A stretch of DNA of 29,862 bases from a virus: positions 1-29,862 of IMG/VR virus record IMGVR_UViG_3300037961_006399; one strand, written 5' to 3'. This document shows, in pieces, positions 2,059 to 21,753 of the stretch. The position numbers were made by a program, and so were the translations under genes. Under the pieces are notes generated by a model that did no database searches, had not been told where the DNA came from, and saw only the letters and a program-made list of their open reading frames with translations. Position 1 is the first letter of the stretch. Every line of letters begins with the position of its first letter.

Positions 2059-2853
2059 CTACTTATACTCAAAACCTGGGGGTAGTGTACCAAAATATGG
2101 GTTATATTGAAAAATAGTATTCCAATCTTTAACATCCATTGCTTGTTTATACCAAAAATCATACACTGCTTGATATGAATTTTTATGAAAAGCCTCTACA
2201 TGATCAGTATGAATAGAAGAACCCAATTCAGTCTTATAAAGAAATAATGGGATTGCAAATGTATTGCCAGAATTATAAATCAAATCATCTGCAACTGCTC
2301 TTGGTTTGACACCATTATCAATTTTATAAAGATCTTCTCCACGTACATGAAGTCTCAATAACTTTTCAGCATGATGTCTTGTAATCATATAACATGCGGT
2401 AGAAAAATCATTCACAAATCTACGATGCATGTTTATATGAATCTGAGTGGTACTAATAATTGCTAGTTGAATTACATCATAAGCATAAGGAACATTTCTG
2501 TAAAAATCTTTCCAGGAAAAGTGCCAAAACTTTACAGTGTCAAGATCACAATCATCTTCCATCATAATAGCACAAGGAGAATCACTGTTCTCATACCAGT
2601 ACTTAATTGCCTTAAGATGAGATGTAGTACACCCAACTTCACCAGAATTCATTGAATCCGGATACCTACCCTTTAAGATGTGTCCAAGATCATCATCTCT
2701 CCCATCATAAGCAGAGATTCTAGTATAATCTTCTATTTCCCAATATTTAAATTGGTTCTCCATATATTCTTTTCTTTCAGGTTGACCATCAAGATTGATA
2801 TAATAAATTGGAGGAAGATTTTTTAGTTTATGTGCCGCTTTGTTTTTATCCAT
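2059..2853 (-). CDS. GT25-family glycosyltransferase
   Basis: A 264-residue protein with hallmarks of the LPS-type GT25 family: YYINLDGQPERK near the N-terminus (about residues 17-28), GEVGCTTSHL (71-80) and the metal/nucleotide acidic motif MEDD (98-101). These enzymes usually transfer galactose or glucose onto lipooligosaccharide, in the cytosol. It is the last gene of the leftward sugar operon and is joined to its upstream neighbour by TAATG (2851-2855). A second, shorter GT25 lies at 7440-8090. Donor and acceptor cannot be read from sequence. Confidence 0.85.
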   Translation of the reverse strand: MDKNKAAHKLKNLPPIYYINLDGQPERKEYMENQFKYWEIEDYTRISAYDGRDDDLGHILKGRYPDSMNSGEVGCTTSHLKAIKYWYENSDSPCAIMMEDDCDLDTVKFWHFSWKDFYRNVPYAYDVIQLAIISTTQIHINMHRRFVNDFSTACYMITRHHAEKLLRLHVRGEDLYKIDNGVKPRAVADDLIYNSGNTFAIPLFLYKTELGSSIHTDHVEAFHKNSYQAVYDFWYKQAMDVKDWNTIFQYNPYFGTLPPGFEYK

Positions 2854-3635: not shown

Positions 3636-4383
3636 TTAAAATATCCTCCATTAACTTATTAAAAATAACTGTTTTTTGCGCCAAAGGATCTTTTGATCCC
3701 TTCCAATTAGAATGCCAATTAGTTGCTGCCCTATAGTGTAAAAACTTATCATCTAGATGAAGTTCCATATTATATCCACCAGAATCTTTTTGCAGATCAA
3801 TATCATTGAAATGCGTTGGATATGTTGGGAATTCTTCGTTAGTTTTTTTCATAACAACACCAGTATTCTTAAAATACCAGTATGTATGGCCCCCAACATC
3901 AGTCATCTCACCATCAACCACACCTTCAGAAAAATCAATATCTTTATCCTCAATCTTTGGCATATTGAAGAACATAATACCATTCCACATGTAAGTAACA
4001 TGACCCCTTACCTGAGGAAGACCTGCAATAATTGCATCTGACATATACTCTTCAATATCAAACTCATCAATGAGGAACATATCAGAATCAAGAAAGAATA
4101 CAATATCTTCAGTATGATTTTTCTTGATGAGATTATCATAAGTCCACTGAACCGTATGAGCACACGCTTGTGCCGGATTCATAGATTTAGTTGCAGGAGG
4201 TTTACGATAGTATTCAAGATCATTCAAAGAACAAGCAATTTCAAACTGCTGTGTAATCTCCGGTTCAATAGAGTCATCGACAATATGAAACTTATAATCG
4301 TTCTTTAAGAACTTACCGAACAATTTTTCCTGCAGAATTACAAAGTCAGGTCTATTTACGACAGATGTAAAAATATGAATCAT
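3628..4383 (-). CDS. GT-A fold glycosyltransferase
   Basis: 251 residues from the ATG at 4383, chosen because it overlaps the epimerase stop as ATGA; a frame extension to 4428 lies inside that gene. The N-terminal sheet (MIHIFTSVVNRPDF) and DIVFFLDSDMFLID (about 93-106) give a DxD-type metal site (DSD 99-101). A Gly/Trp-rich middle and a C-terminal NWHSNWKG follow. No family number is certain. It is soluble, acts in the cytosol, and lies between the epimerase and a FucT-like gene. Confidence 0.7.
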   Translation of the reverse strand: MIHIFTSVVNRPDFVILQEKLFGKFLKNDYKFHIVDDSIEPEITQQFEIACSLNDLEYYRKPPATKSMNPAQACAHTVQWTYDNLIKKNHTEDIVFFLDSDMFLIDEFDIEEYMSDAIIAGLPQVRGHVTYMWNGIMFFNMPKIEDKDIDFSEGVVDGEMTDVGGHTYWYFKNTGVVMKKTNEEFPTYPTHFNDIDLQKDSGGYNMELHLDDKFLHYRAATNWHSNWKGSKDPLAQKTVIFNKLMEDILSD

Positions 4384-5279
4384 AGTTGCTCCTTTACCCA
4401 ATCCTCTAGTTTTACTTTTGGACTCCACCCAAAAGTATTACGCATCCTCTCATTATTAGCACAAGTAGTTCTAGACTCCCCAATGCGTGGAGGAATATTA
4501 GTAGTATTGTCAGAAATCATTGCTGCCACTTCATTTACAGAATAATTTACACCATTACCAATATTATAGACTTGTCCAAATGAATCTTCTTCACAATTAC
4601 CGATTGCTGCCATGACATTTGCTCTGACAACATCACCAACGTATGTAAAGTCCCTACGCTGCTCTCCATCGCCCACAATGGTTAGAGGTTCCTCAGCAGC
4701 ACGTTGACGAAGGAAGATGCCGATAACGGGAGCGTACTGCCCCTTAAGAGGTTGTCTCTCCCCATAAACATTAAAGTATCGAAAGATAACTGTATTCAAT
4801 CCAAACAGATTGGTGTACATAGTACATAGTTTCTCACCGTTTGTCTTGGAGACTGAGTAAGGGTTTAAACAATCATCAGGTTGAGTCTCAACATTAGGTG
4901 CTTCATTGAAACCATATGCAGATGATGTTGAAGAATAGATAACTCTCTTCACACCCGCTTCTCTTGCACACTGAAGAACAGTGCAAGTTCCTACAGAGTT
5001 TACACTAACAGCTTTGATGGGATTTTCAATAGCAGGTTGAATTCTCGACTCTGCAGCTAGATGAAAAACATAATCAACACCGTCATACAATGGACGAGTA
5101 TTATCATAATCACAAATGTCAAGCACATTGTTTTGTACTTTATCATTCCAATAAAACTCTTCATTAGATTTGGCACTTTGATTGTCGATAACGACAACTT
5201 CGTGACCCAGTTCTACAAGATAGTCCACAAGGTTAGACCCAATAAAACCAGCACCACCTGTTACCAGACTTTTAGTCAT
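4380..5279 (-). CDS. NAD-dependent sugar-nucleotide epimerase/dehydratase (GalE-like)
   Basis: 299-residue extended short-chain dehydrogenase. The NAD-binding TGGAGFIGS is at 7-15, the catalytic SSTSSAYG at about 116-123 and YSVSK (Y141/K145) follows. RYFNVYGERQ and the later RRDFTYVGDV match UDP-glucose/UDP-GlcNAc 4-epimerases (GalE, WbpP). It likely interconverts UDP-Glc(NAc) and UDP-Gal(NAc), or acts on the product of the neighbouring heptose-like module. It lies just downstream of the HAD/nucleotidyltransferase fusion with an 8-nt overlap. The SDR class is certain; the substrate is not. Confidence 0.85.
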   Translation of the reverse strand: MTKSLVTGGAGFIGSNLVDYLVELGHEVVVIDNQSAKSNEEFYWNDKVQNNVLDICDYDNTRPLYDGVDYVFHLAAESRIQPAIENPIKAVSVNSVGTCTVLQCAREAGVKRVIYSSTSSAYGFNEAPNVETQPDDCLNPYSVSKTNGEKLCTMYTNLFGLNTVIFRYFNVYGERQPLKGQYAPVIGIFLRQRAAEEPLTIVGDGEQRRDFTYVGDVVRANVMAAIGNCEEDSFGQVYNIGNGVNYSVNEVAAMISDNTTNIPPRIGESRTTCANNERMRNTFGWSPKVKLEDWVKEQL

Positions 5280-6006
5280 GACTAGATTTCTCCAAAATAG
5301 AATCGTAAATTTGTTGTTTTAGTTTTGTAGTTGAATAATTGTGTCCTCTATTCAACCAAACGATGTCAATGGGAATCTCTTTCCCAGTGTAAGATCCATC
5401 CATGTAATCATCACCTAAGAACCTAATATCATAGTCCTTGAGGTATTCCAGAAATGTTTCTTCTTTTTGATATACTACAATATCATCAATATATATGATT
5501 GATTTCAGAATCTCTTTTCGTTCTTCTACAGTTTGAACTGGAGTAAGTTTATGAAGTCTTTCTTCTGAAGGGTCATTATGAAGAGCTATTGTCAAATGAT
5601 TGCAATGCCATTTCGCTTCTTTAAACATCCTAATATATCCAGGATGAATAATATCAAATGCACCAGCAACTATTCCTTTTAATTTTGGTTGTGATGCTGC
5701 CCACTTACTTGCTTCAACCCCCTTATCATCAATAAAGATATCGGCATTTGGTTTATGAAACATGGGTTCAAGTTCGTGGTACTTATATCCCCACATTGCC
5801 AACTGATTGCGTGTCAAATCACTATGGTCTATACCAGAACCTCTACCACGAGCAGTCATCATAATAATGTAATGACCTTGATCATATAAGTTATTGACTG
5901 CTCTCACCATCCAGGGGAGAGGAATAGCATTATGATAATCAGGTTTTCCATTTACCTTATTTGGTGTATGACACAGAGTGCCATCAATATCAAAACAATA
6001 TCTCAT
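5272..6006 (-). CDS. HAD phosphatase (EcbF/BcbF-type) fused to a cytidylyltransferase-like domain
   Basis: 244 residues from the ATG at 6006 (ATGA overlap with the upstream SIS gene). Residues 1-105 are a HAD domain: FDIDGTLC (5-12), TARG (51-54), FIDDK (91-95), with the WGxxYHEL pattern of EcbF/BcbF capsule phosphatases. Residues 110-235 resemble glycerol-3-phosphate cytidylyltransferase/HldE-type nucleotidyltransferases: VAGAFDIIHPGY (113-124), a later EERKEILKSI and the C-terminal STTKLKQQI. The usual H-x-G-H is H-P-G-Y, so the second His is Tyr. Neighbours are a SIS isomerase and a GHMP kinase, so it may dephosphorylate and activate a heptose-type sugar. Confidence 0.75.
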   Translation of the reverse strand: MRYCFDIDGTLCHTPNKVNGKPDYHNAIPLPWMVRAVNNLYDQGHYIIMMTARGRGSGIDHSDLTRNQLAMWGYKYHELEPMFHKPNADIFIDDKGVEASKWAASQPKLKGIVAGAFDIIHPGYIRMFKEAKWHCNHLTIALHNDPSEERLHKLTPVQTVEERKEILKSIIYIDDIVVYQKEETFLEYLKDYDIRFLGDDYMDGSYTGKEIPIDIVWLNRGHNYSTTKLKQQIYDSILEKSSHD

Positions 6007-6506
6007 ACAACTCCGTGAAGAAAAATCTGATGAACACATTCTACCACACCATAAGACTCACTGTCTATATGGTAATTAAATACGGCATTTTTAGATCTTG
6101 TTCTTAGTCTATTGTTTCCATAAAATCCTGTAAGAACACCGTAATCAATTTCATTTTCATCACAGTATTTTTGACACTTAATAATGTTCTCAGACTCACC
6201 ACCAGAGCTCATAAGGATAACAAGTGTATCATCCTCCACATGATACTCTAAAAATTTCAGGTATGCATTCTCATATCCAAAGTCGTTAGCAAGCATTGTA
6301 AGCATTGATGGGTCAGAAAAGATGGATACCCTCTTCTTTCCAAACTTCATATAGTCCTGAGAGATGTGTGATGCAACAGAATTACTACCACCATTTCCCA
6401 AGATGATAATTCTTTTATGGTTATCAAATGCTTCCTTAAATTTTTGAAACTCACATTCCATGTGAGCAGATTTAAGAGCATCTACATATTCATTAAATGG
6501 ATTCAC
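6003..6506 (-). CDS. SIS-domain phosphosugar isomerase, GmhA-like
   Basis: 167 residues with the SIS sugar-phosphate motifs GNGGSNSVASH (37-47) and MSSGGESENI (99-108), the pattern and order seen in sedoheptulose-7-phosphate isomerase (GmhA, typically about 190 aa). GmhA converts sedoheptulose 7-phosphate to D-glycero-D-manno-heptose 7-phosphate; sedoheptulose 7-phosphate is abundant in the Calvin cycle of a cyanobacterial host. The start is GTG at 6506 with a strong GAGGGGG Shine-Dalgarno sequence 6-7 nt upstream, overlapping the GHMP kinase by 14 nt. It is slightly short for GmhA, so another SIS isomerase function is possible. Confidence 0.75.
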   Translation of the reverse strand: MNPFNEYVDALKSAHMECEFQKFKEAFDNHKRIIILGNGGSNSVASHISQDYMKFGKKRVSIFSDPSMLTMLANDFGYENAYLKFLEYHVEDDTLVILMSSGGESENIIKCQKYCDENEIDYGVLTGFYGNNRLRTRSKNAVFNYHIDSESYGVVECVHQIFLHGVV

Positions 6507-7440
6507 CCAATACCCCCTCAGACACTACGTCTATTTTAACAGAATCATATGGAAGAGTCAAAGAATTTTTTTCAGAAAATGTTAAAAAGAATCCTCCATT
6601 GCCTGCTCCACATAATTTATGTGCGATAACAGACTGGTCTATTTTAAGGTAATCATCAATCTCCCTAATACGACGATTCTCCGTAATACTAGTAGATGTA
6701 TTCTTCTTTTGAATCCACCCTTCCTTAAAAAGTTTGAAGAATTTTATAAAGTCACAGTTTAAAATTTCCTGATGTGCTTTCTCAACTGTGTCAAGCAGAG
6801 GTTTGATTTTATCTAGATTATCAGTTACATTCTTCAGAACTTTTTTTGAATTCCTAGTTACACCGCTGAAGACAAGATGAACGTCATACCGATTGAAAAT
6901 ATCAGTATTCAAATACTCATATCTAATTCTATCATTCTCTAAGAATTCAATCCTCTTAAAACCACCGATACCACATCCATATGGATCTTGATATCCACAA
7001 TAAGGATTAAATGACAATTCAAGTTCATGTGCCAACTTACAGATAGACTCGGAAGTCATATCTATTTTCTTAAAGATACAGCAAGCTTTGATAAGACTAA
7101 TAATATAAGACGAAGAAGATGCCAACCCACTACCTTGTGAGTAAGCATCACTTGTCAGGGTTACCTGCACTGGAGGCATCTTGAAATATTCAAAAACAAC
7201 TCTAACTACATCATTCTTGATTTCAGAAACACCACCTACCTCTTCTCTACGTGAATAATTGATAATGTATTTGTGTTGGTCTTTGTTAAATCCAAACTTA
7301 TCCTGACTAATTGTCACATAAGTTTTAAGATTGGATGTAAAACTAATTACAGAACCATATCCATATTTCTTGACGAAAAATGGATTGTCAGTAGAACCTC
7401 CAAAAAGAGAAACTCGAAGAGGGCAGGAGGATATAATCAT
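6493..7440 (-). CDS. GHMP-family sugar kinase, HddA-like
   Basis: 315 residues. The N-terminus CPLRVSLFGGSTD (6-18) matches the GHMP motif 1 of D-glycero-D-manno-heptose-7-phosphate kinases. GSGLASSSS (103-111) is the ATP-binding P-loop, and CGAGNGGFF near residue 280 is motif 3. HddA phosphorylates the anomeric carbon to give heptose 1,7-bisphosphate, the step before phosphatase and nucleotidyltransferase. It is immediately followed by the GmhA-like and HAD/nucleotidyltransferase genes, which supports the heptose reading. L-fucose or galactose kinase activity is a less likely alternative. Confidence 0.75.
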   Translation of the reverse strand: MIISSCPLRVSLFGGSTDNPFFVKKYGYGSVISFTSNLKTYVTISQDKFGFNKDQHKYIINYSRREEVGGVSEIKNDVVRVVFEYFKMPPVQVTLTSDAYSQGSGLASSSSYIISLIKACCIFKKIDMTSESICKLAHELELSFNPYCGYQDPYGCGIGGFKRIEFLENDRIRYEYLNTDIFNRYDVHLVFSGVTRNSKKVLKNVTDNLDKIKPLLDTVEKAHQEILNCDFIKFFKLFKEGWIQKKNTSTSITENRRIREIDDYLKIDQSVIAHKLCGAGNGGFFLTFSEKNSLTLPYDSVKIDVVSEGVLGESI

Positions 7441-10290: not shown

Positions 10291-11036
10291 AATTGTTTAA
10301 TTGCAGTTTCATAATAGTTTACAGATGCTTGTGAATTGTTTCCACAAGAGTGCCAATTGCTATCAGATCTAAGTCTATGATTGTGTCTAAGTCCTTCAAC
10401 TATTTTAACCTTTCCACCACTCTTTAACCAATAGTAAAAAACAGCAGCAGTGTCAGCATGTAGTAAAGGTGTTTCAACATTTTCATAAGGTTCTTTCAAA
10501 ACCTCAGTATATCTATCTTTATTAACAATATAGTTGCCAGAATTTACTAACCAACCAAACCATTCAATATTACCCAGGATACATTTCTTACTTTCCTCAA
10601 TACCAATTAAATCATATCCAAAATTATAATCAGATACAACTTCAAAGTCATTAGCACCATCATGCTTACAACAGAGATGTTGTGGAGAATAAAAAATATT
10701 AGGATCGCTATCTGGTATTCCTCTCATGAGTTGATAACTTTCTTCAAATGGATAATTATCACTATCTAATAGATATACCCATTCATTGGAACAGTTTTTT
10801 ACTGTCTGGTACTTATTTCTAAATGCGCCTACATTTTTAGTATTGGAAAATAACTTTATCTTTTTAGAGTTAATATTTTCTATTTTACTTTTAAATGTTT
10901 GAAAATGTTCTGGAGATGAACAATCATCATTAACAACAATTTCATCAATAAAATCATCATCTAAAGCATATTTTATACAATCATCAAAATATTGAGATGT
11001 ATTGTATGTTGGAAGAGCAAGACTAATTTTTTTCAT
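10287..11036 (-). CDS. GT2-family glycosyltransferase
   Basis: 249 residues with an N-terminal GT2 GT-A core: SLALPTYNTSQYFDDCI (5-21), EIVVNDDCS (32-40) and the DxD region VYLLDSDNYPF (87-97). The C-terminal half (GLRHNHRLRSDSNWHS) is of the kind that binds acceptors. No membrane segment, so it is not a processive synthase. It starts at TAATG shared with the RmlD-like gene at 11036 and ends by ATGA overlap with the GT47-like gene. Confidence 0.85.
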   Translation of the reverse strand: MKKISLALPTYNTSQYFDDCIKYALDDDFIDEIVVNDDCSSPEHFQTFKSKIENINSKKIKLFSNTKNVGAFRNKYQTVKNCSNEWVYLLDSDNYPFEESYQLMRGIPDSDPNIFYSPQHLCCKHDGANDFEVVSDYNFGYDLIGIEESKKCILGNIEWFGWLVNSGNYIVNKDRYTEVLKEPYENVETPLLHADTAAVFYYWLKSGGKVKIVEGLRHNHRLRSDSNWHSCGNNSQASVNYYETAIKQL

Positions 11037-11812
11037 TATGAAATATTAAAAGAGTACATTTCCAATAGTTGTTGTTCAACTGTCAAATCCACAGGACGCC
11101 CATAAATTGTTTTCAAACTTCTATCACAATAATCAACCATCACCGGATTTATTTTGTTGTTCAAATTATATATCTGATTAATAAATGAGGTCAATTGATA
11201 TTTACTAACAGTATCCTTAGAGTGATAGTGTCTTACACCATCCCAATATGATTTTGAATTAATAATTGAAACTATTTCTTTAGTCAATTGTAAACATGTC
11301 AATCCATTCCAAAAATGGTTCAAGTATCCGTTTATAGTTGTATTCTTATTGGTTTTTACCCATTCAACCAAAGATTTTTTATTCAGTAGTTCTTCACCTA
11401 TAATTGATGTGCGAATTACAGTTACATTATTTGGCTCTCCCAAAGATTTACTTTTGCCATAATCATCAAGACAATCATGAACACTAAGTTCTGTATATGA
11501 TCCTTCTTTACCACTAAAAACACAATCTGTAGTAACATGAATTACATGACACTTGAGAGAAGACAGAAAATGTGGAAACAATGAATTAACTCTAATCAAT
11601 TCATTTGCAGTATATGATCTTTGCTTAATAACTCCTGCAGCGTTCACAATAACATCATCATCATTAAAACAATACTTATCGGTGATGTTGTTAAAGTCTT
11701 CTAATAAATCAACATCTTTTCTTGTAATAGGAACTACATCAAGAAAAGAACTCATATACTTTGTAAGGTATCTTCCCAACATTCCATTGGCACCAAAAAT
11801 GTAAACTTTCAT
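11036..11812 (-). CDS. RmlD-like nucleotide-sugar 4-ketoreductase
   Basis: 258-residue SDR of the RmlD substrate-binding family: FGANGMLGRYL (6-16), IVNAAGVIKQ (about 55-64), HVTTDCVFSG (about 92-101) and the YGKSKSLGE catalytic block. RmlD reduces dTDP-4-keto-rhamnose; relatives such as WbvR reduce the UDP-linked 4-keto amino sugar made by a WbjB-type enzyme. The WbjB-like gene lies three genes upstream and no RmlABC is visible, so the UDP-amino-sugar route is preferred. It lacks the C-terminal cupin of WbjC/CapF, judging from its length. Confidence 0.75.
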   Translation of the reverse strand: MKVYIFGANGMLGRYLTKYMSSFLDVVPITRKDVDLLEDFNNITDKYCFNDDDVIVNAAGVIKQRSYTANELIRVNSLFPHFLSSLKCHVIHVTTDCVFSGKEGSYTELSVHDCLDDYGKSKSLGEPNNVTVIRTSIIGEELLNKKSLVEWVKTNKNTTINGYLNHFWNGLTCLQLTKEIVSIINSKSYWDGVRHYHSKDTVSKYQLTSFINQIYNLNNKINPVMVDYCDRSLKTIYGRPVDLTVEQQLLEMYSFNIS

Positions 11813-11814
11813 AA

Positions 11815-12489
11815 TTATTTGTAAGTAGATTTAATTAAGTAGAGAATAGTATCGTCCTTACATCTCACAAAAGCATTTGGGTATGGATCTTGTAAGGATC
11901 TAATTTTATCAAAAAGTTCTTTTGATGTATAGTTAGAAAAGTCTTCTAACTTTATTTCACTCATATATTTTTTTCTTCTTTTAAAATAAGAGGATTTAGA
12001 ATTGTCTTGGTCAATAAGATTTAAAGATAAATTTTTCAAATCTTTTTCGATAATTTTTGTACACCCCTCTACACCAATACTTATAATTTTTTCAAAAACT
12101 TCATACAAATCACAATCTTCAATACCAAATTGTCTTTGAAATACTATTGGTCCAGTATCAATTCCAGTATCCATCAAAAATAAAGTAACGCCACTAATAG
12201 TTTCCCCATTTATAATCTGATGCTGTATTGGACTTCCGCCCCTATACTTTGGCAATAGAGATGGATGCAAACATATACATCTATTAGAATTTACTATAGA
12301 TTCGTCTACTATACTACTCCAACCTATAAAAAAAATTAAATCATATTTGTAGTTTGATATTAAATATGAAAATTTGTTATCAGTATTGCAAACGGAAAAT
12401 ACAACATCTTCAGTTTTAAACTTCTCTTGAATTTGAACACATATTGAATCAGACCATTCTCTATATGAGCATAGTAAAATGCTTTTCAT
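11815..12489 (-). CDS. formyltransferase-fold protein with altered catalytic Asn
   Basis: 224 residues of the formyl_trans_N type used by Fmt, ArnA and sugar N-formyltransferases: LHPSLLPKYRGGSPIQ (74-89) and GVTLFLMDTGIDTGPIV (100-116). His75 and the Asp in GIDTG (111) are present. The catalytic Asn two residues before the His is Cys73 (codon TGT) where NxH is expected. The C-terminal part may recognise the sugar. It follows the PIG-L deacetylase with TAATG coupling at 12487-12491, fitting removal of acetyl followed by addition of formyl from N10-formyl-THF. Activity is uncertain because of the Asn change. Confidence 0.75.
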   Translation of the reverse strand: MKSILLCSYREWSDSICVQIQEKFKTEDVVFSVCNTDNKFSYLISNYKYDLIFFIGWSSIVDESIVNSNRCICLHPSLLPKYRGGSPIQHQIINGETISGVTLFLMDTGIDTGPIVFQRQFGIEDCDLYEVFEKIISIGVEGCTKIIEKDLKNLSLNLIDQDNSKSSYFKRRKKYMSEIKLEDFSNYTSKELFDKIRSLQDPYPNAFVRCKDDTILYLIKSTYK

Positions 12490-13112
12490 TAATCAACCCA
12501 TCTAATAATTTGAAACGATTCTGCACTCGGCATGTTGGATTGAAATCCTCTCAAATAAGCCATCTGTCTTAGAGTATCAGGACCTCTATGTCCCCTGACC
12601 TGTGATTTTAGGAAGTTATATGAAAAAACTTTATCGTCAATATCTAATGGAGAGAAGTAATTTGGTTTAAAAGAACTATTGAGATCATGAGTACAATCCC
12701 ACAAAAAACTGTGAACTTCTTCATAAACTAAAACTTTTTTAACGAAAAAGTTGATGTCATGATGACGAAGAGCAACTAATGCTGCATCATAAACTGCAAT
12801 GTGATCTTGATTATAGGATGGATAAGGAATAAAAACTTTATCGGGTTTAACCTTATTAATTTGCTCTTCAAAAATAGGTATCAAATCTTGCATTACATAG
12901 TTGTTTACCTTGTTCTCAAGATATACATCGTAACTAAATCCACAGTGATCGGAAAGATTTTTTAATTCTTGCAATCTTTCCTCTCTACTCACCACATGAA
13001 ATACATCAACACCACACTCAACAACGTGAGCATCTTCATTCAAAAAACTGAAGCATCCCAATAACTCATCATCAACATGAGGAGATATTACTAGTGTTTT
13101 TTTAGTGGTCAT
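12489..13112 (-). CDS. PIG-L/LmbE-family de-N-acetylase
   Basis: 207 residues with the zinc-binding PHVDDELLG motif (11-19; H12, D14, D15) and YNQDHIAVYDAALVAL (about 110-125), the second metal/His motif of PIG-L deacetylases. The family removes the acetyl group from GlcNAc-type sugars, here probably a nucleotide- or glycan-linked N-acetyl sugar. It lies 3 nt after the WbjB-like gene and directly before the formyltransferase-like gene. The P-H-x-D-D-E core has Val where Pro is most common. Confidence 0.85.
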   Translation of the reverse strand: MTTKKTLVISPHVDDELLGCFSFLNEDAHVVECGVDVFHVVSREERLQELKNLSDHCGFSYDVYLENKVNNYVMQDLIPIFEEQINKVKPDKVFIPYPSYNQDHIAVYDAALVALRHHDINFFVKKVLVYEEVHSFLWDCTHDLNSSFKPNYFSPLDIDDKVFSYNFLKSQVRGHRGPDTLRQMAYLRGFQSNMPSAESFQIIRWVD

Positions 13113-13115
13113 AAT

Positions 13116-14045
13116 TTAAGGTTTAAAAAAGTTTTTTTCTTTCAAGATTGAATATAGCATGTTTTTGTCAATAACACAATCTTCTGAAGAGTATTGATTA
13201 TTTGGAAAACTTACTTCATCGTAAATATTCGTTTGATGCATCAGATAATGATCATTAAATTTTTTCATTCTCGCAACTTCATCTTGAGATGCCATTATCT
13301 CATGTATTTTTTCACAACTCCTTGGTTGTGAAACATCATACTTCAATCCAAACTCTTCTTTAAAGATTTCAAAAAGATCAGAGACTTTCATACTATGTAA
13401 AATGGGAATTACATTATATCCATCAGTTTTAAGTCCAATCTCAATTAAATTAATAGCATCATCAACATTGATAAAAAATCTAGTCATCTCTTCACCATAC
13501 AAGGACAAACTAAACCCCTCCTTTATACTATGCCACATCAAAGGAATGATGCTACCAGTACTATTCAAAACATTCCCATAAACTGCCGTGCTCAGTCTAA
13601 CATCACTTTTACTAGAATTTGAAATAAACGATTCACCTGCAACATATTTCATTGCACCATATATTGTAGTTGCAGATCTGCTTTTATCACTTGAAATAAA
13701 ACATGATGACTCAAACTCATTTTCCTCAGAGCACCTCCTACTATTAAAGGCACCATTAACAATCACCTGATTTGCTTCTTCATAGTTATCATGACAAGCT
13801 TGAATCTGTTTAAATGAAGCAGTAAAAATTCCAACATCATGATTTTTACTGGCACGTTTCATTAAATCATAATTCCTAACATCACCACAAATACATTCCA
13901 AATTTGGATACTTTTTCTTTAGATGATATTGCTTTGATTCATCTCTAGAATAAACCGTGATATGATTTTTATCATAAAATCTCTTAATTATTGACCGTCC
14001 AAGAAAACCAGTTCCTCCTGTCAAGAATATTTTTTTGTTTTCCAT
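13116..14045 (-). CDS. PseB/WbjB-type UDP-GlcNAc 4,6-dehydratase (with or without 5-epimerase)
   Basis: 309-residue SDR of the polysaccharide biosynthesis CapD/FlaA1 group: TGGTGFLGRSI (9-19), VYSRDESKQ (31-39), CGDVRNYDL, ASFKQIQACHDN, SSDKSRSATTIYGAMK (about 118-133, with the Tyr-x3-Lys pair) and RFFINVDDA. In PseB and WbjB the same positions read TDKA and YGATK. Those enzymes make UDP-4-keto-6-deoxy-HexNAc; the RmlD-like reductase downstream could finish a UDP-L-RhaNAc-type sugar. Sub-type is inferred from context. Confidence 0.75.
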   Translation of the reverse strand: MENKKIFLTGGTGFLGRSIIKRFYDKNHITVYSRDESKQYHLKKKYPNLECICGDVRNYDLMKRASKNHDVGIFTASFKQIQACHDNYEEANQVIVNGAFNSRRCSEENEFESSCFISSDKSRSATTIYGAMKYVAGESFISNSSKSDVRLSTAVYGNVLNSTGSIIPLMWHSIKEGFSLSLYGEEMTRFFINVDDAINLIEIGLKTDGYNVIPILHSMKVSDLFEIFKEEFGLKYDVSQPRSCEKIHEIMASQDEVARMKKFNDHYLMHQTNIYDEVSFPNNQYSSEDCVIDKNMLYSILKEKNFFKP

Positions 14046-14848: not shown

Positions 14849-15586
14849 TCATACATAAATGTATCTATCTTCATCATCAACAATTACATCTATATCATTT
14901 CCATCTTTACGATGTTGCCAATATTTTTTAGAAGTTCTTGGGTAATATATTCTAGTTGCATCAGACAACCAAGCAGCCCACCACGAATATGACGATTGAG
15001 ATATTGCTATGTGTTTATAAGATGCAATATCAACAAAGTCTTGCCATTCACTATTAGATACAACTTTACAATTAAACACATCTTTTATTTCAGATATAAA
15101 AGAGTGATTTGGTTCATCGGTATAGATGACTGGAACTTTTTTAGAATCCTTTATTACATCGATATAATATTCAACTGGAAGATTATTATTGTCTCTATAA
15201 TATTCCCCCAACCTAATATGAACTGCAATTAAGTCATCATCATATAGAGATCCATTTTTTTCAAAAGAGTATATTTTTTTCACATACTCTTTATAATTTT
15301 TTATATTTTCATAGACTTGATAATATCCATGAATACATATCATCCCTTTATGTTTAGATAATTTATCATAATCCATTTGCCAAATATCAGAACAAATGAT
15401 TGGATTATCTTGAATGATTATATTATTATTTTCACCCAAATTAGATTCATAAAAATTTCCTGGTTTTTTTGCATTTAAAAAATACTTTGTCTTTTTAGAT
15501 AAAATCCTACAACATGCGTATTGGAAAAGGTGATTTCCAAATCCAGAATTTATATCAGACTGTCCTCGGTATTGCAAATTAATCAT
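14849..15586 (-). CDS. GT11 alpha-1,2-fucosyltransferase-like (copy 1 of tandem pair)
   Basis: 245 residues with GFGNHLFQYA (15-24, family G-x-GNQxFQYA), VHIRLGEY (122-129, the GDP-fucose-binding HxRxGDY motif) and SQSSYSWWAAWLSDA (about 195-209, the family SxFSWWxAWL). GT11 enzymes add L-fucose in alpha-1,2 linkage to galactose. Copy 2 lies 8 nt upstream; both end in the same ten residues (VDDEDRYIYV) and share exact DNA repeats, so they arose by duplication. Asp to Glu in the HxRxGDY motif (GEY) is shared by both copies. Confidence 0.85.
   Translation of the reverse strand: MINLQYRGQSDINSGFGNHLFQYACCRILSKKTKYFLNAKKPGNFYESNLGENNNIIIQDNPIICSDIWQMDYDKLSKHKGMICIHGYYQVYENIKNYKEYVKKIYSFEKNGSLYDDDLIAVHIRLGEYYRDNNNLPVEYYIDVIKDSKKVPVIYTDEPNHSFISEIKDVFNCKVVSNSEWQDFVDIASYKHIAISQSSYSWWAAWLSDATRIYYPRTSKKYWQHRKDGNDIDVIVDDEDRYIYV
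14853..14875. repeat. 23-nt repeat at the 3' ends of the tandem GT11 genes, copy 1
   Basis: Identical to 15599-15621. It encodes the shared C-terminus of the two GT11 paralogues. Confidence 0.9.
14955..14991. repeat. 37-nt exact repeat in GT11 genes, copy 1
   Basis: Identical to 15695-15731. It encodes the conserved SYSWWAAWLSDAT region of both genes. The near-perfect DNA identity over the active-site block, against diverged flanks, fits recent duplication or gene conversion. Confidence 0.9.
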
Positions 15587-15594
15587 AATATCTG

Positions 15595-16347
15595 TTAAAC
15601 ATAAATGTATCTATCTTCATCGTCAACGGTAAAGTCTATATCATTACCATTGTGACTCCAATAATTTTTATATGAAAGGGGATAATAAATTGTCGTTGCA
15701 TCAGACAACCAAGCAGCCCACCACGAATATGTAGATTGAGATATAATAATATGTTTATGAGATGCCATTTTTACAAAATCATCCCACTGTGTAGGAGATT
15801 TTGATTCTACCCAAGTTTTATCAGAAGAAGAAATGTCACAATCAACTAAAGATTCTATTTCTTGAACATATGGATGTGTAGGTTGATCTGTGTAAATAAT
15901 TGCTTTCTTTTTAGACTTTCTAATACAATCTACATAATATTCTTTTGGCAATTGATTGTTATGCCTACAATACTCACCAAGTCTAATGTGAACTGCTATT
16001 AAATTATCATCATAAAGATTTTTATCTTTTTCAAAAGAATAAAGATTTTTTACATATTCTTTATGGTATTTTATATTAGAGTATCTTTGAAAGTATCCAT
16101 AAAAGTGTATTAATCCCTTATGCTTTGAAATACTATCATAATCAATACTCCACACATCACCACCAATCATCATTTCATTATTACTATATCTAATATCATT
16201 ATTCTCTGGAGGATTAAGATCTATAAATTTACCTTCAATAGGAGGTACTCCATCCAAAAAATATTTTGTTTTATTAGATAAAATCCTCGCTACAGCATAT
16301 TGCATCATCTGATTGGCAAGGTATCCACCATAACTAAGTTTTATCAT
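15595..16347 (-). CDS. GT11 alpha-1,2-fucosyltransferase-like (copy 2 of tandem pair)
   Basis: 250 residues. GGYLANQMMQYAVARIL (7-23) is a weakened G-x-GNQxFQYA loop, VHIRLGEY is at 119-126 and SQSTYSWWAAWLSDA at about 205-219. Compared with copy 1 the middle (a segment around TWVESKSPTQWDD) is about ten residues longer and the N-terminal loop differs. Acceptor specificity may therefore differ while the donor site is kept. TAATG coupling with the GT34-like gene at 16347. Confidence 0.85.
   Translation of the reverse strand: MIKLSYGGYLANQMMQYAVARILSNKTKYFLDGVPPIEGKFIDLNPPENNDIRYSNNEMMIGGDVWSIDYDSISKHKGLIHFYGYFQRYSNIKYHKEYVKNLYSFEKDKNLYDDNLIAVHIRLGEYCRHNNQLPKEYYVDCIRKSKKKAIIYTDQPTHPYVQEIESLVDCDISSSDKTWVESKSPTQWDDFVKMASHKHIIISQSTYSWWAAWLSDATTIYYPLSYKNYWSHNGNDIDFTVDDEDRYIYV
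15599..15621. repeat. 23-nt repeat at the 3' ends of the tandem GT11 genes, copy 2
   Basis: Identical to 14853-14875, at the 3' end of the second GT11 gene. Confidence 0.9.
15695..15731. repeat. 37-nt exact repeat in GT11 genes, copy 2
   Basis: Identical to 14955-14991, 740 nt away, in the same reading frame of the paralogue. Confidence 0.9.
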
Positions 16348-17093
16348 TAATAATCATTCCTCCAGGGTTGACCGCCAGCAAAGTGGCGAATGATGACATC
16401 CTTTCGTTCTACCTGATTAATATTAAACGTACATCCAGATTCACCAGGCATCTCAGTCACGTTCCAGCATGTAGGTAACACCTCAACGTGTTTATACAAC
16501 TCTTCTAAAGAGTATACCGTCCATTCATCTTTATCAGAATGCCAACCATAATGTGCAAGATTGTAAAATGGAATATTAGAATGTCTTTTTATACCAGCCA
16601 AAGAATACCAGGATGCTTGTTCTCTGAATATACTCCAAAAACTATCTCTGTGACCAAAGTATTCATGAAGAGTAATCTTATCCTTTAAATTCTGATACCT
16701 ATTTTCATCAAGAAGATGATCAAGCATATTTTTAGACCATTCATTAACTTTGATGGAATAATTTCCCATACAATGAGTATTTCCAGAATCAATACAATAG
16801 GTAAATGATTTATTAGAAGGATAATCAACATTCAGTTTATGAATACACATATCAGCATCAATATGTGTTAGGGTATCTCCTTCTTTCAAAGTTCCATCAT
16901 TTATAAGATCTCTAACAATAGTAAACTTCCACCAAGTTGGATGATCTCTAAACGGTTTATAAGGACCAAGATATTCCAAATATTCATAACCATGAATATC
17001 ACAATACTCCCTATTCCTAGGAGAAAAATTAGTTTTAAAAAATTCTTGCCTCTGATCTGGGTAATTTGCAATTACCATTAAGTATTTTTTCAT
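16347..17093 (-). CDS. GT34-like GT-A glycosyltransferase
   Basis: 248 residues. The pattern N-R-x-Y-C-x-x-HGYEYLEY (about 27-40), HPTWWKFTIVRDLI (about 51-64) and THIDADMCIHK (about 76-86, DxD) resembles GT34 (GMA12/MNN10) galactosyl/xylosyltransferases. The C-terminal IIRHFAGGQPWR would carry the last metal ligand His. No signal anchor, unlike eukaryotic GT34. It sits between two pairs of GT11 genes, so it may supply the hexose that is fucosylated. Family call is tentative. Confidence 0.65.
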   Translation of the reverse strand: MKKYLMVIANYPDQRQEFFKTNFSPRNREYCDIHGYEYLEYLGPYKPFRDHPTWWKFTIVRDLINDGTLKEGDTLTHIDADMCIHKLNVDYPSNKSFTYCIDSGNTHCMGNYSIKVNEWSKNMLDHLLDENRYQNLKDKITLHEYFGHRDSFWSIFREQASWYSLAGIKRHSNIPFYNLAHYGWHSDKDEWTVYSLEELYKHVEVLPTCWNVTEMPGESGCTFNINQVERKDVIIRHFAGGQPWRNDY

Positions 17094-17899
17094 TTTAAAA
17101 AAGTAAAATTACCAAACTTTAATCCATCTACATTTTTATGTATATTGTCAGAACCAACCCAATTACTTGGCGCTATAACTTTTTTACTTTTAGATAACCA
17201 TGCACCCCACCAAGAAAATGATGAATTAGCGATAATATGATATGTACAAAGTGATTGCAAACAAAGATCTACTCCACTATTGTTATCTTCAACAAAAATA
17301 AATCTATCTTGGTCAAACATTTTTTGATTTTTACACCAATCAATATCGTCAGAAAAAATCATGACGGTAAGTTCTTGTGGCAAAAGATCTAAAGATTTTT
17401 TATAAAAATCAATACTAGCTAAAGGATGATGATTTTGAAGTTGCACATAATCTGTTCTGCGAATATGAAGAGAAATTACTTCAGAATTGTCAAAATTTTC
17501 TCTAAACGCATCTTCAGTTGGTTCTATAATTTCATCTACAAAGGTAAATGCATTTCTTATATCTTTCTCAATGTGTTTAAAATATTTTTCTGTTTGAAAA
17601 TACCCCATCAAACTAATATTATCTGGACACCTATCCCACAACAGTTCATCTAAATTGTAACTAGTTCTTTCCATTACTTTTGGAAAATTTGTTATGTTTC
17701 TGGGAGCATCAGGTATGTTAAAGCATTCAAACATAGTAATGTCAGAATTTTTAACCTTATCGTCTTTTGTACCGATTACCTCTTCTGGGGGAAGACAATA
17801 ATCATAACCATGCTTTTGTGCCAATCCTCTTAAAGATGCATACTGGAACATTTGGTTACCAAGTCTCCCCAGATTTCCTAAATCGTCATTTGCAATCAT
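17090..17899 (-). CDS. GT11 alpha-1,2-fucosyltransferase
   Basis: 269 residues, the most canonical GT11 here: GRLGNQMFQYASLRGLA (11-27), HIRRTDYV (145-152) and NSSFSWWGAWLSKSKKV (about 218-234), with length close to bacterial FutB/WbsJ-type enzymes. It uses GDP-L-fucose, which gmd plus fcl can make. It ends by ATGA overlap with the GT34-like gene. Confidence 0.9.
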   Translation of the reverse strand: MIANDDLGNLGRLGNQMFQYASLRGLAQKHGYDYCLPPEEVIGTKDDKVKNSDITMFECFNIPDAPRNITNFPKVMERTSYNLDELLWDRCPDNISLMGYFQTEKYFKHIEKDIRNAFTFVDEIIEPTEDAFRENFDNSEVISLHIRRTDYVQLQNHHPLASIDFYKKSLDLLPQELTVMIFSDDIDWCKNQKMFDQDRFIFVEDNNSGVDLCLQSLCTYHIIANSSFSWWGAWLSKSKKVIAPSNWVGSDNIHKNVDGLKFGNFTFLK

Positions 17900-17906
17900 C
17901 TGTAAA

Positions 17907-18698
17907 TTAAATTATTTTCCAATGAGAAAGGTACAAGTCATCAGTATTGTGATTTATACAATCTCCAGCAAACCATTTCTTTGGAGCTACAACATTTTGA
18001 CTATTTGCCAACCAAGCACCCCACCAACTAAAAGTACTATTACAAATTACATGATACTTACATTTACTCATAATATAAAGATCATAATATGCATTATCAG
18101 TTTCTGAAATAATAAATCTATCATCAGAAAATATGTCTTGTTGTTTTGCCCACTCAATATCATCAGTAAAAACAAGAACTGGAATATCTGTAGGAAACTC
18201 ACCCAGACCGTCAATATAGTATTGATTATCCTGAACGGGATGATTTGGATTTTTTAGAAAATCATTTCTCCTAATATGAATAGCAATCGAATCTTTATAT
18301 TGATCAACTATATCAGAACAATCGTCTTGTATTTCTTTTTTAAATACAAAGTCATTGGTTCTCAATTCATCCTCTATATTTTTAAAATATTTTTCAGATT
18401 GAAAAAATCCAACAAGATTGTAATCTCCATTTGATAGAGCCTCTACTAATTCACTATCATAATGAAAAAATCTTTCATTGACATTTGTATATGATGATAT
18501 TCCACGATAACATTTTATATCAAAAGCTTCATCGATATTACTAAAAAGATTTTGATAATAATGCTTACCAAAAATATTACTTGGAGGAATACAATATTCA
18601 GTATTATATTTTTTTGCAAATGCCTTAACAACAGAATACTGAAACATCTGGTTCCCCAGATGTCCATTATTTCCCAGATGATTGATAGAAAAACTCAT
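17907..18698 (-). CDS. GT11 alpha-1,2-fucosyltransferase
   Basis: 263 residues with NGHLGNQMFQYSVVKAFA (11-28), HIRRNDFL (141-148; Tyr of the usual DY is Phe) and NSTFSWWGAWLANSQNVV (about 215-232). It is clearly related to the GT11 at 17090-17899 and more distant from the tandem pair at 14849-16347. Starts by ATGA overlap with the ColD-like gene. Likely a cytosolic transferase with GDP-fucose as donor. Confidence 0.9.
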   Translation of the reverse strand: MSFSINHLGNNGHLGNQMFQYSVVKAFAKKYNTEYCIPPSNIFGKHYYQNLFSNIDEAFDIKCYRGISSYTNVNERFFHYDSELVEALSNGDYNLVGFFQSEKYFKNIEDELRTNDFVFKKEIQDDCSDIVDQYKDSIAIHIRRNDFLKNPNHPVQDNQYYIDGLGEFPTDIPVLVFTDDIEWAKQQDIFSDDRFIISETDNAYYDLYIMSKCKYHVICNSTFSWWGAWLANSQNVVAPKKWFAGDCINHNTDDLYLSHWKII

Positions 18699-19858
18699 AG
18701 TAAAGAAAGAATATCACTAAGTAAATTTATTTCTTGTTCTCCAATGAAATGATTATTTCCTAGGTAAATTCCATTGTAGTGGACAAGATCTACATTAAGT
18801 TCTTTTTTACTAGTAGTTATAGAATAATCTTTTAGGAATGGTTGTTTAAGCAAATTTCCACCAATAATAGGACGGTGTTCAATACCATTTTGATCAAAGA
18901 CTTTTCTCAACCTATGAGCATATCTAACGTCCTTACAAATAATTGGGAAGCAAAAATTACTCACTCCCTCGTGATACTTAGGTACATAGAATAAGTTTGG
19001 ATACTTTTCCATCAAAGAAATAAACATTGAATAATTTTTATTTCTTTTCTCAATATATGAATCAAGTCTGTTTAATTGAGATAGTCCAAGAACTGCACTA
19101 AGTTCATCATTTCTAAAATTATATCCATCAGTAACAAATAAAAATTGTTTAGAAATATCTGGATACATCTCTTTATATCGATCAAACATTTCAGATTCTC
19201 TTGCAAGACCATGAGAACGTTTGATTCTCATCAAATCATAAAGTTCATAATTGTTGGTAGAAACTATTCCACCTTCAATTGTAGACATATGATGTCCAAA
19301 ATAAAAACTAAAGGTTGCTCCAATACTATCAGATCCTACTTTAGATCCATCGGCATTTTTACATCCATGAGACTCGCATACATCATCAATAATTAAAGCA
19401 TTTGGAAATAGTTCAGAATACTTACTGTTATTTGCAGGAAATCCTATCAAATGTGTTGTAAAAATTAATTTAATATCTGGATGTTCTTTTGCAATGTACT
19501 GCAAATCTTCTTCGCAGAAACTAAAATTATCTAAGTTAATATCACAAAAGATTGGTGTAAATCCTAACTGAATAACTGGACCAATATTTGTTACCCAAGT
19601 ATCTGCCGGTACTAATACCTTGTCGCCATCTTTTAAACCATAATATTCTTTTACGGATGCAAGTAAAAGATAATTCGCGGTACTTCCAGAGGAAACAAAT
19701 AGTGAGTGTTTACAACCCAACCACTCTGACCATTCTTTTTCAAAACTTCTAACTTTCCTACCATTAGTAAAACGATCAGAAGTTAATACAAACTTTGCTA
19801 GATTATATCTGTCACCTAGAGTGACATTGTTTTTCATTAACGGCCATTTATAGTTCAT
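18695..19858 (-). CDS. ColD-like GDP-4-keto-6-deoxymannose 3-dehydratase (DegT/DnrJ fold)
   Basis: 387 residues from the ATG at 19858, chosen for its AGGTGG Shine-Dalgarno sequence 7 nt upstream; a longer frame to 19891 would overlap fcl more. PLP-fold signatures are SSGSTANYLLLAS (56-68), DDVCESHG (158-165, the Asp that binds the pyridine) and ATFSFYFGHHMSTIEGG (181-197). His189/190 stand where aminotransferases have the Schiff-base Lys. That exchange defines ColD and E1/RfbH dehydratases (ColD active-site His188, about 388 aa, from memory). It lies directly after gmd and fcl, whose intermediate is the ColD substrate. A GDP-perosamine synthase is unlikely without the Lys. Confidence 0.75.
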   Translation of the reverse strand: MNYKWPLMKNNVTLGDRYNLAKFVLTSDRFTNGRKVRSFEKEWSEWLGCKHSLFVSSGSTANYLLLASVKEYYGLKDGDKVLVPADTWVTNIGPVIQLGFTPIFCDINLDNFSFCEEDLQYIAKEHPDIKLIFTTHLIGFPANNSKYSELFPNALIIDDVCESHGCKNADGSKVGSDSIGATFSFYFGHHMSTIEGGIVSTNNYELYDLMRIKRSHGLARESEMFDRYKEMYPDISKQFLFVTDGYNFRNDELSAVLGLSQLNRLDSYIEKRNKNYSMFISLMEKYPNLFYVPKYHEGVSNFCFPIICKDVRYAHRLRKVFDQNGIEHRPIIGGNLLKQPFLKDYSITTSKKELNVDLVHYNGIYLGNNHFIGEQEINLLSDILSLL

Positions 19859-20762
19859 TTTTATACCACCTGTATGTTTTTTCAATTCCATCTTTTAATT
19901 CAATTTTAGGTTCCCAACCAAGTGCTTTGATCTTATCTACATTTAGGAGTTTTCTTGGAGTCCCATTTGGTTTACTAGTATCCCATTCAATTTCTCCAGC
20001 AAATCCAACAACATCTGCAACTGTTTCAGCAAGTTCTTTAATAGTTACGTCGGTTCCAGTTCCAACATTAATAATATCAGAACTATCATAATCACGCATA
20101 CAAACAAAACATGCTTCAGCAAGATCATCGGCATGAAGAAACTCTCTTCGTGCTGAACCATCACCCCAAAGAGTAACTTTATTGTTTTCCTCATAAAACC
20201 TACGAATCATGGCAGGAAGAACATGAGAACTTTCTAAATCAAAGTTATCATTAGGTCCATACAGATTAGTAGGCATAACAGAAATTGCATTGAATCCATA
20301 TTGCTTACGGTATGCTTGGCACATTTTAATACCAGCAATCTTTGCAATAGCATATGAATCATTAGTTGGTTCCAGAGGACCTGTCATCAAATACTCTTCC
20401 TTGATTGGTTGCTCACACATCTTTGGATAGATGCAAGAAGATCCAAGGAACAAAAGTTTCTTGACACCATACTTACGTGCAGCATGAATGATATTTGACT
20501 GAATCATCAAATTATCATAGATGAAATGTCCAGGATAATCCCTATTTGCAACAATACCACCAACCTTTGCAGCAGCAAGATAAACATATTCAGGCTCATT
20601 GATTCTGAAAAAATCTTCTACATCTTGTTGATTACGTAAATCCCATCGATAAGATGGCGATGAAATAATATTAGTATACCCCTTCATATGAAGCATACGG
20701 ACGATTGCTGATCCTACAAGTCCTGTATTGCCAGCAACATATACTTTACTATTACTGTCCAT
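19848..20762 (-). CDS. fcl: GDP-L-fucose synthase (WcaG/Fcl)
   Basis: 304 residues from the ATG at 20762; a frame extension to 20780 lies further inside gmd. [16 protein letters not shown] (7-22), AAAKVGGI (63-70), GSSCIYP (107-113), SYAIAK (Y137/K141) and [17 protein letters not shown] match NADPH-dependent GDP-4-keto-6-deoxymannose 3,5-epimerase/4-reductase. It makes GDP-L-fucose from the gmd product. Because a ColD-like enzyme follows, it or a relaxed activity could also reduce the 3-deoxy intermediate, as ColC does. The start overlaps gmd by 11 nt. Confidence 0.92.
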
Positions 20763-21753
20763 AGATACACATATCCTCAACTAGTTCCTTAAATGATGTT
20801 TTGGGTTCCCAACCCAATTTTTCTTTTGCCTTGGTAGGATCTCCAAGTAAAGTCTCTACTTCTGCGGGACGGAAATACTTAGAATCAACTTTAATAATCG
20901 GTCTCTTCGTATTCCAATCATATCCAACTTCATCCAATCCTTCACCCATCCATTCAATCTGCATACCAAAGATTGGTGCAGCAGCTTCAACAAAATCACG
21001 AACAGAGTATTGTTCACCAGTTGCAATCACATAATCATCAGGTTCATCCTGTTGAAGCATCAACCACATTGCCTCAACAAAATCTTTTGCATGTCCCCAA
21101 TCCCTCTTTGCATTGAGATTGCCAAGGTACAAGCAGTCTTGAAGACCTGCAGAAATTCTAGACAATCCTCTTGTGATCTTACGAGTTACAAAAGTTTCAC
21201 CACGTCTTGGCGACTCATGATTGAATAGAATCCCAGAACTACAGTGCATTCCATAAGACTCTCTATAGTTTTTTATAATCCAATATCCATAAACTTTAGC
21301 ACATCCATAAGGAGATCTGGGATAGAAAGGTGTAGTTTCTGACTGTGGTATTTGCTGAACTTTACCATACATCTCAGAAGTAGATGCTTGATATATCCTA
21401 ACTTTACCCTCCATACCCAACAAACGGACTGCCTCAAGCACTCTCAGGGTTCCTAGAGCATCTGTCTGTCCTGTGTACTCAGGCATCTCAAACGATACCT
21501 TTACATGACTCTGAGCGCCCAGATTATAAATCTCATCTGGTTGAACTTGCTGAATAACTCTGACAAGATTAGTAGAATCTGTTAAATCTCCATAATGAAG
21601 ATTAAGTTTATCGTAAATATGATCAATACGATGTGTGTTAATCAGAGAAGCGCGACGGACAATACCATGAACTTCATATCCTTTTTCGAGGAGAAGTTCT
21701 GCTAAGTATGATCCATCTTGCCCTGTGATACCAGTAATTAGAGCAACTTTCAT
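20752..21753 (-). CDS. gmd: GDP-mannose 4,6-dehydratase
   Basis: 333 residues, full length for [19 protein letters not shown] (7-22), [15 protein letters not shown] (77-91), STSEMYG (124-130), SPYGCAK (Y149/K153) and [16 protein letters not shown]. It converts GDP-D-mannose to GDP-4-keto-6-deoxy-D-mannose in the cytosol. First gene of the 25-gene leftward operon, about 20 nt behind the -10 box at 21774. Phosphomannomutase and GDP-mannose pyrophosphorylase are not in the window, so GDP-mannose must come from the host or from elsewhere in the genome. Confidence 0.96.

What the first reader, a model, noticed from the sequence alone, without database searches (positions are those of the whole stretch)
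5272..7440. Phage heptose-type module: GHMP kinase, SIS isomerase and HAD/nucleotidyltransferase fusion
The order kinase (HddA-like), isomerase (GmhA-like), phosphatase plus nucleotidyltransferase (fused) matches the GDP/ADP-heptose pathway, with the last two steps in one polypeptide. A Calvin-cycle host holds plenty of sedoheptulose 7-phosphate, the entry substrate. The phage could therefore divert a photosynthetic intermediate into a nucleotide-activated heptose. The nucleotidyltransferase domain looks like the HldE/GCT group, so the nucleotide could be CMP, AMP or GMP.
Basis: partly seen in the sequence, partly recalled or inferred. Interest (0 to 1): 0.8.

Follow-up and report, generated by a model that had tools for sequence, protein, structure and literature searches.

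The report
Phage heptose-activating gene cassette
A marine cyanophage carries four overlapping genes that most likely turn a seven-carbon sugar phosphate into an activated sugar for building surface glycans; the same four genes sit in many related viruses and in some Prochlorococcus chromosomes, and the activating enzyme has an unusual, invariant change in its catalytic motif.

Summary
The three genes are real and close to the stated coordinates. A fourth belongs with them: kinase (GHMP), isomerase (SIS), HAD phosphatase fused to a nucleotidyltransferase (NT), and an NAD-dependent epimerase. In 88 distinct loci, wherever the flank is long enough, the order is always GHMP-SIS-HAD/NT-epimerase. 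The cassette is not phage-only: it lies on Prochlorococcus chromosomes (4 of 4 species held of one GTDB genus, 5 of 300 in the family), and host and phage cassettes are sister clades. The isomerase matches GmhA-type models. The kinase is nearer HddA than fucokinase or galactokinase, but forms its own clade. The HAD half is kin to AfhF, a phage D-arabinose 1,5-bisphosphate phosphatase, not to GmhB. The NT half is GCT-like, with HPGY instead of HxGH in every cassette copy and in no other relative examined. Best reading: an NDP-D-manno-heptose cassette with an alpha-type kinase and a GCT-fold transferase, a mixture of the two classical heptose routes. Sugar, anomer and nucleotide are untested. 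The heptose annotation was already published for phage SynMITS9220M01, so this is a new variant of a known kind.

The parts
6493..7440 (-). GHMP-family sugar 1-kinase (HddA-like), 315 aa
   Evidence: Pfam GHMP_kinases_N 1.4e-08; NCBIfam HddA 91.5 bits vs fucokinase/FKP 42.6, galactokinase 39.9, mevalonate kinase 45.1; PDB best 3k85, 4n3o
6003..6506 (-). SIS-domain ketose/aldose phosphate isomerase (GmhA-like), 167 aa, GTG start
   Evidence: NCBIfam gmhA best; all 28 aligned members match GmhA models, KdsD matched by only one; PDB hits are phosphoheptose isomerases, then DiaA
5272..6006 (-). HAD phosphatase + GCT-like nucleotidyltransferase fusion, 244 aa from the likely start at 6006 (longer ORF from 6039)
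5689..6006 (-). HAD (capless, AfhF/EcbF type) domain; motifs DxDGT, TARG, K, DD
   Evidence: 9iqw AfhF, 39% id over 111 columns; D17, D19, K96, D104, D105 invariant in 36 sequences
5272..5688 (-). GCT-type nucleotidyltransferase domain with HPGY in place of HxGH
   Evidence: 1coz Z 17.7, 2b7l 16.8, HldC 5xf2 14.6; HPGY in all 139 cassette matches, His at that place in the other relatives
4380..5279 (-). NAD-dependent nucleotide-sugar epimerase (GalE-like), fourth gene of the cassette
   Evidence: Pfam Epimerase 5.8e-59; follows the fusion in 87 of 87 loci that could be judged
2059..2853 (-). GT25 glycosyltransferase, on the same locus in 70 of 88 cassettes, usually soon downstream (candidate user of the activated sugar)
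   Evidence: Pfam Glyco_transf_25 9.5e-12

Best explanation
The four genes are a translationally coupled nucleotide-sugar cassette. Proposed chemistry: the SIS enzyme isomerises sedoheptulose 7-phosphate to D-glycero-D-manno-heptose 7-phosphate; the GHMP kinase phosphorylates C1 (by analogy with HddA, the alpha anomer); the HAD domain removes the 7-phosphate; the fused GCT-type domain transfers a nucleotide (CMP is the first guess by fold) to give NDP-heptose; the epimerase changes one stereocentre (C4 or C6). A nearby glycosyltransferase, perhaps the GT25, then adds the sugar to a glycan made by the surrounding glycosyltransferase cluster. The cassette is shared by cyanophages and Prochlorococcus chromosomes. 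Shown: gene order, families, conserved catalytic residues, purifying selection, host/phage sharing. Inferred: each substrate, the anomer, the nucleotide, the epimerised carbon and the destination.
For: Invariant four-gene order in 88 distinct loci. SIS matches GmhA-type models far above any other SIS family and keeps the metal/catalytic positions conservatively: E. coli H61, E65, Q172, H180 correspond to H, D, E, H by a gapless reading (invariant). Kinase best to HddA models and structures. The HAD family has a phage member solved as a D-arabinose 1,5-diphosphate phosphatase, and in P-SSM2 its homologue sits beside HldA-like and HldC-like genes, so the family fits removal of the distal phosphate of a sugar bisphosphate. 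Standalone HAD homologues in bacteria often lie next to GmhA-like SIS genes. NT folds as GCT, then HldC. Median dN/dS 0.11 for HAD and 0.15 for NT. The heptose annotation was published for SynMITS9220M01 (PMC7378029).
Against: No protein reaches an equivalog cutoff (HddA 91.5 of 600, gmhA 51.6 of 209, GCT 58.7 of 165). The kinase is outside the canonical HddA clade. The NT lacks the second His of HxGH. LR756511 carries a kinase-NT fusion with no HAD or SIS detected nearby, so the product could be a sugar that needs neither. The epimerase is nearer GalE than HldD and also occurs in P-SSM2 and S-SKS1, where no cassette kinase was found. Cyanobacterial LPS cores are described as lacking heptose (PMC4390846).
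Confidence: 0.6

Rival explanations
1. C5 version: ribulose 5-phosphate to arabinose 5-phosphate to arabinose 1,5-bisphosphate to NDP-D-arabinose, as in T4-like phages that arabinosylate DNA, or in a glycan pathway.
For: The HAD half's nearest solved relative is AfhF, a phage D-arabinose 1,5-diphosphate phosphatase. T4-like phages place this HAD beside an isomerase, an NTP-transferase-like protein and a thymidylate-synthase-like gene; PMC13390438 describes such arabinose clusters.
Against: In those phages the isomerase is annotated as arabinose 5-phosphate isomerase or kpsF; here the SIS matches GmhA-type models and the only KdsD match among 28 members is weak and comes from the Cr30 outgroup. 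The kinase is HddA-like. No DNA-modification gene was recognised among the window proteins examined.
Confidence: 0.12
2. Classical GDP-D-glycero-alpha-D-manno-heptose pathway (HddA/GmhA/GmhB/HddC), the NT accepting GTP.
For: HddA-like kinase and GmhA-like isomerase.
Against: The NT is GCT-fold, not an NTP_transferase like HddC, and the phosphatase is not GmhB-like. SynMITS9220M01 also carries a separate HddA-like kinase and an NTP_transferase, suggesting a different product for this cassette.
Confidence: 0.08
3. The HPGY domain no longer transfers nucleotides; it binds or channels the sugar phosphate, and another enzyme activates the sugar.
For: The second His of HxGH, catalytic in the superfamily (general knowledge), is replaced in every copy.
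Against: Other motif residues are retained (H132, R174, R231, S236), the domain is under purifying selection, it is fused to the kinase in LR756511, and no other NT is constant in the cassette.
Confidence: 0.1
4. A different aldose product (another heptose stereoisomer or a hexose), with the epimerase setting the final sugar.
For: Kinase clade distinct from canonical HddA; GalE-like epimerase.
Against: No positive evidence for another substrate; isomerase models all point to GmhA.
Confidence: 0.1

Closest known systems
GDP-D-glycero-alpha-D-manno-heptose pathway (HddA, GmhA, GmhB, HddC)
   Same: HddA-like GHMP kinase and GmhA-like isomerase, with phosphatase and nucleotidyltransferase steps
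   Different: GCT-type NT instead of HddC; AfhF/EcbF-type HAD instead of GmhB; the last two are fused; a constant epimerase is added
ADP-L-glycero-beta-D-manno-heptose pathway (GmhA, HldE or HldA+HldC, GmhB, HldD)
   Same: isomerase and a nucleotidyltransferase of the same broad superfamily; an SDR epimerase at the end
   Different: GHMP instead of PfkB kinase; HPGY instead of HxGH; HAD not GmhB-like; epimerase nearer GalE than HldD
Heptose genes of cyanophage SynMITS9220M01 (MT408532; PMC7378029)
   Same: the same four genes in the same order, 62-80% identical, three of them already annotated as heptose genes
   Different: the fusion there is annotated 'hypothetical protein'; the fusion, HPGY and host copies are not in the passage read
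Phage AfhF and arabinose clusters of T4-like phages (PDB 9iqw)
   Same: the HAD family and the logic of isomerase, kinase, phosphatase, transferase
   Different: arabinose 5-phosphate-type isomerase; a different NT protein; linked to DNA modification
P-SSM2 genes PSSM2_309-311
   Same: AfhF-like HAD next to an HldC-like NT and a sugar kinase
   Different: PfkB/HldA-like kinase, HPGH motif, HAD and NT not fused

Membership tests
GDP-heptose pathway (HddA/GmhA/GmhB/HddC) | HddA kinase at the family cutoff | tested here: not met
   91.5 bits against a cutoff of 600; cyanobacterial HddA reach only 399, so the cutoff is strict; kinase outside the HddA clade
GDP-heptose pathway (HddA/GmhA/GmhB/HddC) | HddC-type NTP_transferase guanylyltransferase | tested here: not met
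   NT is CTP_transf_like with GCT fold
ADP-heptose pathway (HldE/HldC) | PfkB-family heptose 7-phosphate kinase | tested here: not met
   kinase is GHMP
GmhA isomerase family | best match to GmhA models over other SIS families | tested here: met
   all 28 members match GmhA models; KdsD only one; below equivalog cutoff
GmhA isomerase family | metal/catalytic residues H61, E65, Q172, H180 (E. coli numbering, from general knowledge) | tested here: inconclusive
   H, D, E, H by gapless reading; the automatic alignment shifts the third by a gap
GmhB phosphatase | GmhB-like sequence | tested here: not met
   best families are PNKP-type HAD in Pfam and phrog_1238 in PHROGs; best structure AfhF; alignable to E. 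coli GmhB only at general HAD motifs
GCT/TagD cytidylyltransferase | GCT fold | tested here: met
   1coz Z 17.7, rmsd 1.9 over 123 residues, on a predicted model
GCT/TagD cytidylyltransferase | HxGH motif | tested here: not met
   HPGY in all 139 cassette matches
HldD 6-epimerase | best match to HldD | tested here: not met
   HldD model 121 bits against 144.8 (LegB) and 143.7 (GalE); PDB HldD 3sxp 79.5 bits against 164.3 for a GalE
NDP-heptose synthesis | enzymatic activity on C7 phosphates | not testable with these tools
   needs biochemistry

The most novel reading that the evidence does not exclude
The cassette is a third route to activated heptose: an alpha-type GHMP kinase feeding a GCT-fold transferase whose catalytic His is replaced by Tyr, making an NDP-alpha-heptose (possibly CDP) used in surface glycans of Prochlorococcus and of the phages that exchange genes with it.
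Probability: 0.35. Interest if true: 0.65.

Novelty: new variant of a known kind. Interest (0 to 1): 0.48.

Why it matters
Cyanobacterial LPS cores are described as lacking heptose (PMC4390846), yet an apparently complete heptose-activation cassette is shared by Prochlorococcus chromosomes and many marine viruses. If it works as proposed it gives marine picocyanobacteria an unexpected sugar, links a Calvin-cycle intermediate to surface chemistry that phages can change, and offers a natural test of whether HxGH transferases can run with tyrosine.

Tried and rejected
Dedicated HldD epimerase: rejected as a specific assignment, the gene is nearer GalE-like enzymes. GmhB: rejected for the HAD half. 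Prochlorococcus copies as stray phage DNA: the flanks of L057 hold what look like host genes (ketol-acid reductoisomerase, two ClpP-like proteases, a CbiB-like protein; read from the sequence, not scanned), and no Gp23 was found, though that control rang nowhere and shows little. Recent repeated transfer between host and phage: not seen, host and phage cassettes are sister clades. IQ-TREE timed out, so FastTree was used. The paper behind 9iqw was not found and the arabinosylation paper cited by PMC13390438 is not held. The pdb_via list tested almost only the NT half.

Full report
Setting. The window is a whole 29,862-base virus record, probably a fragment. It carries a high-light inducible protein and a ferredoxin with PHROG matches, four tRNAs, and a long minus-strand run of glycosyltransferases and nucleotide-sugar enzymes. 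The nearest named genome with the whole module is Synechococcus phage SynMITS9220M01 (Kyanoviridae).

The observation. The three genes exist as described, and a fourth, the NAD-dependent epimerase at 5279-4380, belongs with them. Neighbouring genes overlap (SIS/fusion ATGA at 6006-6003, fusion/epimerase at 5279-5272), which suggests translational coupling. Two scans of viral contigs with the fusion protein or its alignment, plus SynMITS9220M01 and the loci, gave 88 distinct cassette loci: SIS lies before the fusion in 80 of 80 that could be judged, GHMP before SIS in 71 of 71, the epimerase after the fusion in 87 of 87. GT25 is on 70 of the 88 loci. Eight loci also hold an HldC-like and seven an HldA-like gene of the P-SSM2 kind.

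The isomerase. All 28 aligned members match GmhA models; KdsD is matched by one only. PDB relatives are phosphoheptose isomerases, then DiaA. Against E. coli GmhA, H61, E65 and H180 align with H, D and H; Q172 corresponds to E if read without the gap that the aligner placed there, and these residues are invariant. This favours a C7 over a C5 substrate.

The kinase. HddA model 91.5 bits, ahead of fucokinase/FKP (42.6), galactokinase (39.9) and mevalonate kinase (45.1); PDB 3k85 and 4n3o first. In a tree, the cassette kinases group with those of Caulobacter phage Cr30 and two Prochlorococcus genomes, apart from the canonical HddA clade, which sits nearer fucokinase (few references, FKP only partial). 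So it works like HddA by resemblance but is not filed as HddA.

The fusion. AlphaFold model mean pLDDT 86.6, pTM 0.80. The HAD half resembles 9iqw, titled phage HY126 D-arabinose 1,5-diphosphate phosphatase AfhF, 39% identical over 111 columns; HAD motif residues D17, D19, K96, D104, D105 are invariant in 36 sequences. The NT half is GCT-like: 1coz Z 17.7, HldC 5xf2 Z 14.6. All 139 cassette matches, not all distinct, read HPGY where every other relative found ends in His, making the change a hallmark of this lineage. Median dN/dS over 52 pairs is 0.11 (HAD) and 0.15 (NT), so the NT half is maintained. In LR756511 the kinase is fused directly to an HPGY-type NT.

Distribution and origin. The cassette occurs in Prochlorococcus single-cell genomes L055-L057, in a further genome on a contig of over 668 kb (G008), and in G215: 4 of 4 species held of one GTDB genus, 5 of 300 genomes of the family. 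The flanks look like host genes from the sequence. In a tree of the concatenated cassette, rooted on LR756511, the five host copies form one clade (support 0.998), sister to the clade of virus copies that includes the window, with L008 and MAG L058 outside. This fits one old exchange; direction cannot be told. The Acidimicrobiaceae MAG copy L054 falls among virus copies and may be a binned virus contig.

Rivals. T4-like phages use the same HAD family in clusters next to an arabinose 5-phosphate isomerase, and PMC13390438 describes arabinose-modified phage DNA. The GmhA-type isomerase and HddA-like kinase argue for heptose here, but activity is untested. SynMITS9220M01 also has a second HddA-like kinase (286.7 bits) with an NTP_transferase, so this cassette probably makes a different product.

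What is known. PMC7378029 already lists heptose genes for SynMITS9220M01. PMC11573728 reports heptose biosynthetic enzymes in viruses, and transferases that make ADP-, CDP- and UDP-heptose. What I did not find described in the papers searched is the HAD-NT fusion, the HPGY motif, the constant four-gene unit and its chromosomal copies in Prochlorococcus; the library is partial, so this is not proof of novelty.

Noticed in passing
L001:18555-21822 (SynMITS9220M01): A second module: HddA-like kinase (286.7 bits), NTP_transferase with weak HddC match, a cupin-like protein and an RmlD-like SDR, suggesting a separate GDP-heptose-type pathway in the same phage.
   Followed up: partly
L005:9986-11362 (LR756511, 595 kb uncultured phage): GHMP kinase fused to an HPGY nucleotidyltransferase in one 458-aa ORF, with the epimerase nearby and no HAD or SIS detected around it.
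   Followed up: partly
L027, L044, L047, L054 and others: P-SSM2-like HldC-like and HldA-like genes sit beside the cassette on some contigs, so two sugar-activating routes can coexist.
   Followed up: partly
window 11036-14045 and 18695-21753: RmlD-like, formyltransferase, PIG-L-like, PseB-like, DegT-type aminotransferase, Fcl and Gmd genes: pathways for GDP-fucose and perhaps a formylated amino sugar. Several ORFs at 14849-18698 were read as fucosyltransferase-like from sequence only.
   Followed up: no
window 4380-5279: The epimerase also occurs in P-SSM2 and S-SKS1 DNA, where no cassette kinase was found.
   Followed up: partly
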